From NCBI GenBank assembly GCA_021823325.1, contig JAKAOG010000006.1, positions 1 through 43,375 on the forward strand: a DNA stretch of 43,375 bases, read 5' to 3'. Source of the DNA: an archaeon. GTDB lineage: Archaea; Thermoproteota; Nitrososphaeria; Nitrososphaerales; Gagatemarchaeaceae. Below the pieces are notes generated by a model. It saw only the letters and a list, made by a program, of their open reading frames with translations. It ran no database searches and was not told the DNA's origin. The position numbers and the translations under genes were made by a program. Of the stretch, positions 25,477 through 27,783 are shown in pieces (within the stretch, counting starts at the first letter, position 1; the number at the start of each line of letters is the position of its first letter).

Positions 25477-27783
25477 TTGCCAATAGAAGACCTGATGTGG
25501 GTCGAGAAATACAGGCCGGCACGGCTCGACGACGTAGCAGGACAGGAGTCCATCAGAAAGAGGCTCGAGGCCCTACTGCAAAAGAAGGAGCAACTCCCTC
25601 ACCTCCTCTTCGCGGGACCGCCTGGGTCGGGAAAGACGACCACCGCGCTACTGGTTGCTAAAGAGATCCTTGGGGATCAGTGGCGGGATTACACCCTGGT
25701 TCTGAACGCCTCGGATGAGAGAGGCATCGACGTGGTAAGGGAGAGGATTAAGACCTTCGCAAGGTACGCCGACAAGAGAGAGGGGGTCCCCTTCAGGCTG
25801 GTCATCCTGGACGAGTCTGACGAGATGTGTCTCAACCCAGACACGAAGATACTCGTCGGGACGCTCGACGACCTCCGAGAGGCATCTCTTCGTGAGCTGT
25901 TGGAGAGTAAAGGCAGGAAGAGGTTCAGGCTTCCTTCTTTCGGAGAGAAAGGGCTCAGGCTTGAGGACGACTGGGGAAGAATAGTGCCTTCTGGGCGCGC
26001 AGAACTCTACAAAGTAACCTTCGACGACGGAAGGACCGTGGAAGCGTCATCTGAGCACCCTTTCTTCCAAGTCCAGGGCAGGGTGGTCAAGACCATAAGA
26101 ACAAAGGAGTTGTCCAAAGGCTCCACGGTGGCAGAATTTTCCGATAGGATTTTGAGATGCTATGGATGCTCGACGCCATTCTACAGGGCAAACCCATGGG
26201 AGGGCTACGAGCACCACTTCTGTTCCACGAGTTGCAGAAACGAATATTTCGGAACGCTTTCAACTCAAAGGCCCCCCGAGGAGAGAACCCGAATCCGCGC
26301 GCTGGCGGCAAGGGGCATGAAAGAAAAGGGGGTCTACGAGTCTCCGGACTATCGCCGAAAAAGGTCTGAAACCGCACACAGGCTCATCCGAGAAGGCAGG
26401 ATACCAGACCCTCGTACCTGGAAGAAGTTCGCGAAGGGTCAAGGCGCATGGATGGGCAAGAAGCTCCCGCTCGAGCACAGGAAGTCCATCTCGGACGGTG
26501 ACAGGAGATACTTCGCAGAGCATCCAGAGGTCAAGGAAGAAATCTCTCGACATGTCAGGACCGCCCTGCTTGACCCAACAGGCCCGTATCAGCGGCTGGT
26601 TCGGTCAGGATTCTTCAAGGAAGCCAGTAAGCGTGCAAGCGCTGCATCACTGGCATCTTGGAGCAAGAAGGGCTTCAGGAGCAAGACTGAGGAAAAGATG
26701 GCGGCTCTGCTAGATTCGTGGGGACTCGAATACGCCCGGGAACGGGTTATCCTGCCGGCCCCTAGTGGGGAGAAGTACCCGCTCGCCGTCGACTTCATGG
26801 TAGGCAATGTTGCAATCTTCGTTAACGGTTGTTGGTGGCACGTCTGCAATAGATGCGGGGTTGAACCCAGATATGAAAAGCAGAAGCGAAACATGGTCAA
26901 AGACGAGAGGCATTACAGGGAACTCGAGCGGCTCGGTTACCGCGTCGTCGTGGTTTGGGAGCACGAGTTGAATGATCCGTTAATCGTGTCGAAAGACGTC
27001 GTCCCAAGAATCTTCCACATGGTGGGAGTCTCGGGAGGGCATCCTCCGAAGGTCAGACATGCGAGGGTAGCGTCGATCGAGAAGATAGGGATGTCCGACG
27101 TGCTTAACGTAAACGTAGACGGGAACAGGAACTTCATTTTGGCAAATGGCGTACTCACCCATAACACCAGTGACGGCCAGACGGCCCTTCGAAGGATAAT
27201 GGAGGAGAACTCCAAGCACACGAGGTTCATCCTGGTCTGCAACTACTCTTCCGGGATCATCGAGCCGCTCCAGAGCAGGTGCGCCATATTCAGGTTCCAG
27301 AGGCTGGACGAGGCGTCGGTAACCCAGCACCTGGAGGAGATCGCCAAGAAGGAGAAGCTCAAGCATTCGGGGGACGCCGTGTTCGGGGAGATCTACGACG
27401 CTACCCAGGGGGACCTTAGGCAGGCGATCAACCTCCTCCAGGCGGCATCGGCCACGGGGGAGGTCACGATAGATGCGGTGAAGTCGGTCTCGGGAGCGGC
27501 GGCGAAAGCGAGGGTCTTCGAAATAGTCAAAGCGGCGCTGGAGGGGGACTTCGAGGCCGCAAGGACGAAGATGATCGAGCTGACGAGGGTCTACGGCATC
27601 CCTGAGAGGGACTTTCTCAAGTACGCTAACGAGTCGCTGGGGTCGCTGAAGGTCCCTGACATGGCGAAGGCGATCTCCATCCTCGCCGAATACGACTTCC
27701 GCCTTGTCCAGGGCGCGCAACCTGAGCTCCAGCTGACGGCGATGCTCGCCCAGCTTTCCTCTCTCAAAGGCGGCAGGGACTAG
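25477..27783 (+). CDS. rfcS: Replication factor C small subunit interrupted by a large intein
   Basis: A 768-residue precursor; the spliced clamp-loader subunit is 322 residues, as expected. The RFC box is WVEKYRPARLDDVAGQ (residues 8-23). Walker A is GPPGSGKT at 47-54 and Walker B is LVILDESDEM, ending at residue 117. The intein occupies 118-563. The host resumes with TSDGQTALRRIMEE and the SRC motif (LQSRCAIFRFQRL). Splicing at the Walker B/sensor region is needed for ATPase function. The start is TTG 25477 with a TATA-like AGTTTAGG about 35 nt upstream. hisS begins 2 nt after the stop. The large subunit lies at 7187-8362. Confidence 0.94.
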   Translation: MPIEDLMWVEKYRPARLDDVAGQESIRKRLEALLQKKEQLPHLLFAGPPGSGKTTTALLVAKEILGDQWRDYTLVLNASDERGIDVVRERIKTFARYADKREGVPFRLVILDESDEMCLNPDTKILVGTLDDLREASLRELLESKGRKRFRLPSFGEKGLRLEDDWGRIVPSGRAELYKVTFDDGRTVEASSEHPFFQVQGRVVKTIRTKELSKGSTVAEFSDRILRCYGCSTPFYRANPWEGYEHHFCSTSCRNEYFGTLSTQRPPEERTRIRALAARGMKEKGVYESPDYRRKRSETAHRLIREGRIPDPRTWKKFAKGQGAWMGKKLPLEHRKSISDGDRRYFAEHPEVKEEISRHVRTALLDPTGPYQRLVRSGFFKEASKRASAASLASWSKKGFRSKTEEKMAALLDSWGLEYARERVILPAPSGEKYPLAVDFMVGNVAIFVNGCWWHVCNRCGVEPRYEKQKRNMVKDERHYRELERLGYRVVVVWEHELNDPLIVSKDVVPRIFHMVGVSGGHPPKVRHARVASIEKIGMSDVLNVNVDGNRNFILANGVLTHNTSDGQTALRRIMEENSKHTRFILVCNYSSGIIEPLQSRCAIFRFQRLDEASVTQHLEEIAKKEKLKHSGDAVFGEIYDATQGDLRQAINLLQAASATGEVTIDAVKSVSGAAAKARVFEIVKAALEGDFEAARTKMIELTRVYGIPERDFLKYANESLGSLKVPDMAKAISILAEYDFRLVQGAQPELQLTAMLAQLSSLKGGRD
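25828..27165 (+). other. RfcS intein with a Vsr-like nuclease domain, NUMOD3-like motifs and a Cys knuckle
   Basis: A 446-residue intein that starts CLNPDTKILVG and ends NGVLTHN before extein Thr564. Hint block B is EASSEHPFFQV and the C-terminal block is NVNVDGNRNFILANGVLTHN. The insert has no LAGLIDADG motif. Instead it shows a C-x2-C/C-x4-C knuckle (CYGCSTPF and HHFCSTSCRNEYF, precursor residues 228-258), and a NUMOD3-like motif (GKKLPLEHRKSIS near 327). A Vsr-like domain spans about 400-500: TEEKM, AVDFMVG, NGCWWHVC, then KDERHYRELERLGYRVVVVW and EHEL. These align in order with Vsr endonuclease, keeping the Asp and the tryptophan-rich GC-WH segment. The DNA is richer in A and T than the host gene. 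Confidence 0.85.

What the first reader, a model, noticed from the sequence alone, without database searches (positions are those of the whole stretch)
25828..27165. RfcS intein whose nuclease looks Vsr-like, with NUMOD3-like motifs and a Cys knuckle instead of LAGLIDADG
The intein has Hint blocks at both ends (CLNPDTKILVG; NGVLTHN before Thr) but no LAGLIDADG. The 300-residue insert holds a C-x2-C/C-x4-C knuckle, a NUMOD3-like GKKLPLEHRKSIS and a segment in which VDFMVG, NGCWWHVC and the long KDERHYRELERLGYRVVVVW helix-strand follow the order seen in Vsr mismatch endonuclease. Vsr-like homing endonucleases (EDxHD type) are known mainly from phage and metagenomic split genes, and this one sits in an archaeal clamp-loader gene. 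NUMOD motifs are usually linked to GIY-YIG or HNH endonucleases. I infer a rare domain combination; novelty is not verified.
Basis: partly seen in the sequence, partly recalled or inferred. Interest (0 to 1): 0.85.

Follow-up and report, generated by a model that had tools for sequence, protein, structure and literature searches.

The report
Archaeal clamp-loader intein with Vsr-type nuclease
A self-splicing protein insert (an intein) in an archaeal DNA-replication gene carries a DNA-cutting domain related to the Vsr repair enzyme instead of the usual LAGLIDADG type, which suggests that inteins have recruited another kind of cutter to copy themselves into empty gene copies.

Summary
The finding is real. 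Window 25828-27165 is an in-frame 446-residue intein in the RfcS (clamp-loader small subunit) gene of an uncultured thaumarchaeote. It has complete Hint ends and no LAGLIDADG match. Its endonuclease is Vsr-like (EDxHD type): the domain model has pLDDT 94 and is closest to E. coli Vsr (Z 13.1) and to the intron homing endonuclease I-Bth0305I (Z 11.6). Homologous inteins sit at the same RfcS position (DEADxM|T) in five more species; the six span three classes, and active-site residues and zinc-type cysteines are kept in 6 of 6. In the host family 39 of 42 readable genomes have an empty site. The position is not among the RFC sites a-c of PMC2814812. A viral Zot-family ATPase intein (L093) carries a Vsr-like nuclease that looks separately acquired. 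Two details fail: the knuckle is C-x2-C/C-x3-C, and Pfam NUMOD3 does not match. NUMOD3-Vsr pairs also occur in free-standing archaeal genes. What is unusual is the Vsr-like nuclease inside a contiguous intein; my searches of held papers listed none, but Dassa 2009, the key prior work, could not be read. Verdict: homing intein with an EDxHD nuclease, a new variant of a known kind. Splicing and cleavage are inferred.

The parts
25477..27783 (+). RfcS precursor gene (768 aa from a TTG start; start codon uncertain)
   Evidence: NCBIfam NF001679 replication factor C small subunit E 1.3e-107 in two stretches
25477..25827 (+). N-extein (precursor residues 1-117, ends ...ILDESDEM)
   Evidence: aligns to the start of intein-free RfcS of relatives
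25828..27165 (+). Intein, 446 aa, Cys1 ... His445-Asn446, +1 residue Thr
   Evidence: PF14890 41.2 bits, cut-off 35.8
25828..26145 (+). N-terminal Hint part (residues 1-106) with block B ASSEHPFF (His77)
   Evidence: sequence; pLDDT 77-95 per ten-residue block and inteins as best fold matches
26146..26673 (+). Putative DNA-binding linker (residues 107-282), largely helical in the model, low confidence
   Evidence: Cys knuckle and motifs such as Y(x3)RSE and GFFK conserved in 6 RfcS inteins
26158..26235 (+). Cysteine knuckle C111-x2-C114 ... C132-x3-C136, FCS type, probably zinc-binding (inferred)
   Evidence: 4 Cys in 6 of 6 RfcS inteins, absent in L093; PF06467 23.1 bits against 22.4 for the window, below cut-off in the three other linkers scanned
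26455..26493 (+). NUMOD3-like string GKKLPLEHRKSIS (assignment not confirmed)
   Evidence: no PF07460 match; weak
26674..26976 (+). Vsr-like (EDxHD) nuclease domain, residues 283-383
26689..26691 (+). E288 (E of EDxHD)
   Evidence: 6 of 6 RfcS inteins and L093; at least 90% of 70 sequences
26791..26793 (+). D322 (first D of EDxHD)
   Evidence: 6 of 6 RfcS inteins and L093; invariant column of the 70-sequence alignment
26830..26856 (+). C335-W-W-H338-V-C340-x2-C343: catalytic His and three putative zinc ligands
   Evidence: H338 an invariant column, C335 and C343 at least 90%; C335, H338, C340 and C343 in 6 of 6 RfcS inteins and in L093
26902..26904 (+). D359 (last D of EDxHD)
   Evidence: 6 of 6 RfcS inteins; Glu at the aligned position in L093; at least 90% of 70
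26977..27165 (+). C-terminal Hint part (residues 384-446), ending NGVLTHN
27166..27783 (+). C-extein (TSDGQTALRR...)

Best explanation
This is a class-1-type intein that homes with a Vsr-like EDxHD nuclease. Shown by sequence and structure prediction: one uninterrupted RfcS precursor, complete Hint termini (Cys1, His77, His445-Asn446, +1 Thr), a predicted Vsr fold with E288/D322/H338/D359, and empty RfcS sites in most relatives examined. Inferred: the precursor splices itself (N-S acyl shift at Cys1, attack by Thr+1, Asn446 cyclisation) to give normal RfcS plus a free 446-residue protein. That protein grips the conserved DEADxM|T codons of an intein-free rfcS allele with its zinc-knuckle/helical linker and cuts or nicks there with the metal-dependent Vsr-like centre. 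Repair from the intein-bearing allele copies the intein in. The RfcS inteins form one family; the viral L093 intein most likely gained its Vsr-like nuclease separately.
For: Intein; Hint fold Z 19.9 to the Ssp DnaB intein. Nuclease: phmmer Vsr 1.4e-5; profile of 70 sequences hits Vsr 3e-43 and I-Bth0305I 5.5e-12; domain model pLDDT 94; Foldseek 3.5e-5 to 1cw0 and 3.8e-5 to 3r3p; Z 13.1 and 11.6. Mobility: of 46 genomes of the family 39 show the site empty, 3 filled (two of them one species), 4 unreadable (my reading of abutting matches). Of 27 loci fetched there, a script finds the uninterrupted motif in 26 and the 27th, L211, is an intein-free variant. G467, same genus as the carrier G446, is empty. 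Same site in six species of three classes. Among the four thaumarchaeal carriers exteins are more alike than inteins in 6 of 6 pairs (56-74 against 49-56%); between classes inteins are more alike than exteins in 7 of 9 pairs, as lateral transfer would give. Function kept: in the nuclease segment third codon positions differ at 57-77% (near saturation) while pN/pS is 0.23-0.45 over 15 pairs; E288, D322, H338, D359 and the cysteines are kept in 6 of 6.
Against: No biochemical data. Pfam Vsr stays below its curated cut-off (14.9 against 27 bits). The residues aligned with Vsr T63/H64 (recalled numbering) are Val/Asn in the window, so the centre differs in detail. In the deposited I-Bth0305I chain the residues aligned with D322 and H338 are both Ala, so that comparison does not confirm the active site; I did not check whether the crystallised protein is a mutant. 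A mitoribosomal chain, 9i05_Xr, also scores Z 10.9, within 1 of I-Bth0305I and free Vsr, so fold alone does not prove nuclease function. The linker model is of low confidence (many blocks under pLDDT 50), so how the target is read is unknown. Synonymous sites are saturated, so dN/dS cannot be computed properly. Two of nine between-class pairs (L146-L256, L149-L256) have slightly more similar exteins than inteins, and the L146 extein is cut by its contig end.
Confidence: 0.86

Rival explanations
1. The intein still splices but the Vsr-like nuclease is no longer a homing enzyme: it is catalytically dead or kept only as a structural or splicing-control (zinc or redox sensing) module.
For: Inteins often lose nuclease function (homing cycle, PMC3229294 passages); the Vsr T63/H64 equivalents are changed; no activity data.
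Against: E, D, H, D and the cysteines kept in six species of three classes; pN/pS of the nuclease segment (0.23-0.45) is no higher than that of the Hint parts (0.24-0.51), with saturated synonymous sites; patchy presence with empty sites in close kin.
Confidence: 0.09
2. It is a Vsr-type repair or defence nuclease that happened to fuse into an intein and acts in mismatch repair or restriction rather than homing.
For: Closest solved fold is Vsr; PADLOC Vsr model E 2.8e-6 (the PADLOC homing endonuclease model follows at 2.2e-5); short Vsr-like ORFs are frequent in the same archaea.
Against: In the tree the RfcS intein nucleases form one clade (100/94) apart from a set of 83 rows that includes E. 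coli Vsr and the short ORFs, and fall near NUMOD- or finger-bearing ORFs, though that deeper grouping is weak; extra knuckle and linker; same insertion point in all six.
Confidence: 0.03
3. The insert is not an intein but a domain insertion in RfcS that is not removed.
For: Splicing not tested.
Against: Complete Hint blocks and PF14890 above cut-off, intein fold Z about 20, precise empty sites, insertion inside the conserved DEADxM|TxDAQ motif.
Confidence: 0.02

Closest known systems
I-Bth0305I (EDxHD homing endonuclease; PDB 3r3p, 'Mobile intron protein')
   Different: A phage intron enzyme; here the nuclease is in frame inside a contiguous intein of an archaeal chromosomal gene, with a C-x4-C-x2-C cluster that 3r3p lacks; in the 3r3p chain the positions of D322 and H338 align with Ala
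E. coli Vsr mismatch endonuclease (PDB 1cw0, 1vsr)
   Same: Fold (Z 13.1), E/D/H/D positions and the GC(F/W)WH segment
   Different: Vsr is a free-standing repair enzyme; the intein domain falls below the Pfam Vsr cut-off and lies outside the set of rows that holds Vsr in the tree
Vsr-like homing endonucleases of 'fractured genes' with split inteins (Dassa et al. 2009; recalled, cited in PMC12350094; paper not held)
   Same: Association of a Vsr-like nuclease with inteins
   Different: There (recalled) the gene is broken and the nuclease is a separate ORF between split intein halves; here one open frame of 778 codons runs through
Inteins of archaeal RFC at sites a, b, c (PMC2814812 passages); LAGLIDADG type for most (recalled)
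   Same: Host protein; insertion in a conserved motif
   Different: Nuclease class, and site: L114|T115 in A. fulgidus RFC numbering, against K51|T52, A76|S77 and S138|C139
Free-standing archaeal NUMOD3-Vsr ORFs (L032, L051, L053, L035)
   Same: Vsr-like core with a modular region before it, same archaeal class
   Different: Not in inteins; their extra part is Pfam NUMOD3, not the knuckle and linker seen here
Viral Zot-family ATPase intein L093 (IMGVR_UViG_3300024433_000375)
   Same: Contiguous intein with a Vsr-like core VNGCYWHEC; BLASTP 2e-16 to the window intein in a single comparison
   Different: No cysteine knuckle, Glu for D359; nuclease closer to the free-standing viral ORF L021 (41% over 113 aa; tree 100/99)

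Membership tests
Intein (Hint, class-1 type) | Cys/Ser at residue 1, block B His, C-terminal His-Asn, +1 Cys/Ser/Thr | tested here: met
   C1, H77, H445-N446 in 6 of 6, Thr+1 in 6 of 6; the usual block B Thr (recalled TxxH) is Ser74 here
Intein (Hint, class-1 type) | Hint profile and fold | tested here: met
   PF14890 41.2 bits over cut-off 35.8; Z 19.9 to 1mi8
Intein (Hint, class-1 type) | Protein splicing | not testable with these tools
   needs expression
EDxHD / Vsr-like homing endonucleases | Vsr-like fold of the catalytic domain | tested here: met
EDxHD / Vsr-like homing endonucleases | E, D, H, D active-site residues | tested here: met
   E288, D322, H338, D359 align with Vsr and are kept in 6 of 6; in the 3r3p chain two of the four align with Ala; which residues the name denotes is recalled
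EDxHD / Vsr-like homing endonucleases | Cleavage of the intron- or intein-less target | not testable with these tools
   needs assay; only empty sites shown
Pfam Vsr (PF03852) sensu stricto | Score over the curated cut-off of 27 bits | tested here: not met
   14.9 bits in the intein, at most 16.3 in sub-segments; so it is called Vsr-like, not Vsr
NUMOD3 (PF07460) | Profile match | tested here: not met
   none in the 4 of 6 RfcS intein linkers scanned at E up to 10, while all 5 free-standing comparators rang, 4 of them above cut-off
LAGLIDADG homing endonucleases | LAGLIDADG profile match | tested here: not met
   no such family in 5 of the 6 RfcS inteins at E up to 0.1 (L256 not scanned)
zf-FCS zinc knuckle (PF06467) | Profile match over cut-off | tested here: inconclusive
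   window 22.8-23.1 bits against 22.4 but 22.2 in the whole precursor; L146, L149, L256 below; all four Cys conserved
Fractured-gene split inteins with Vsr-like nuclease (Dassa 2009) | Intein and host gene split, nuclease as separate ORF | tested here: not met
   single open frame, no stops inside; definition recalled

The most novel reading that the evidence does not exclude
Contiguous inteins have taken up EDxHD (Vsr-like) nucleases as their homing engine at least twice, once in an archaeal RfcS family at a fourth RFC site that has crossed three archaeal classes, and once in a viral Zot-family ATPase; this is a separate, undescribed lineage of inteins beside the LAGLIDADG and HNH ones.
Probability: 0.6. 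Interest if true: 0.66.

Novelty: new variant of a known kind. Interest (0 to 1): 0.56.

Why it matters
Intein mobility is treated mostly as a LAGLIDADG story, with HNH as a minor case (recalled; PMC7765530 names four homing-nuclease families and calls LAGLIDADG the most common in inteins). A Vsr-like nuclease inside a contiguous intein shows that the Hint domain accepts a further, structurally unrelated nuclease. It links the free-standing or intron EDxHD enzymes with inteins, and it offers a candidate site-specific nuclease with a target in a highly conserved clamp-loader motif. Six alleles with matched empty sites make homing, target reading and lateral spread directly testable.

Tried and rejected
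NUMOD3: rejected as unproved. Descent from the short Vsr-type ORFs of the same archaea: not favoured by the tree, with the caveats that the deeper joins are weak (25/75 at the midpoint root, 84/83 below), columns few, some branches long and the bootstrap not settled. G011's 100% identical intein looked like recent transfer, but its flanks are also 99.9% identical over 41 kb, so it is the same species. A second RfcS fragment in G035 (contig C127) ends in the same intein and is 97.2% identical to the first copy over the 393 bases they share: a strain variant or a second copy, not another species. Long open frames L016-L018, L257-L259, L264 and L265 from weak Hint matches are inteins in other genes, and L260-L263 are RfcS genes with an empty DEADxM|T site (judged by eye). 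L050's 524-codon frame is a free-standing nuclease, not an intein. The other match rows I judged mainly by open-frame length and by reading a sample of ORFs. Viral scans with A3 and A4 gave no relative. Of the 69 viral loci only L093 looked like an intein, judged from frame length and start of sequence and reading three of them. The scan gave, besides L093 itself, 17 loci that share only the C-terminal Hint end and were not examined further. Plasmids: 32 records, none covering 80% of the query; every annotated one among the 20 listed lies under a Vsr-type gene, some also touching a neighbour. Phages: two unannotated records at E 5e-3 and 6e-3. Ten literature searches listed no paper that I could recognise as about a Vsr-like nuclease in a contiguous intein; only open-licence papers are held, I read passages of ten, and Dassa 2009 is missing. 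Proper dN/dS was not possible because synonymous sites are saturated.
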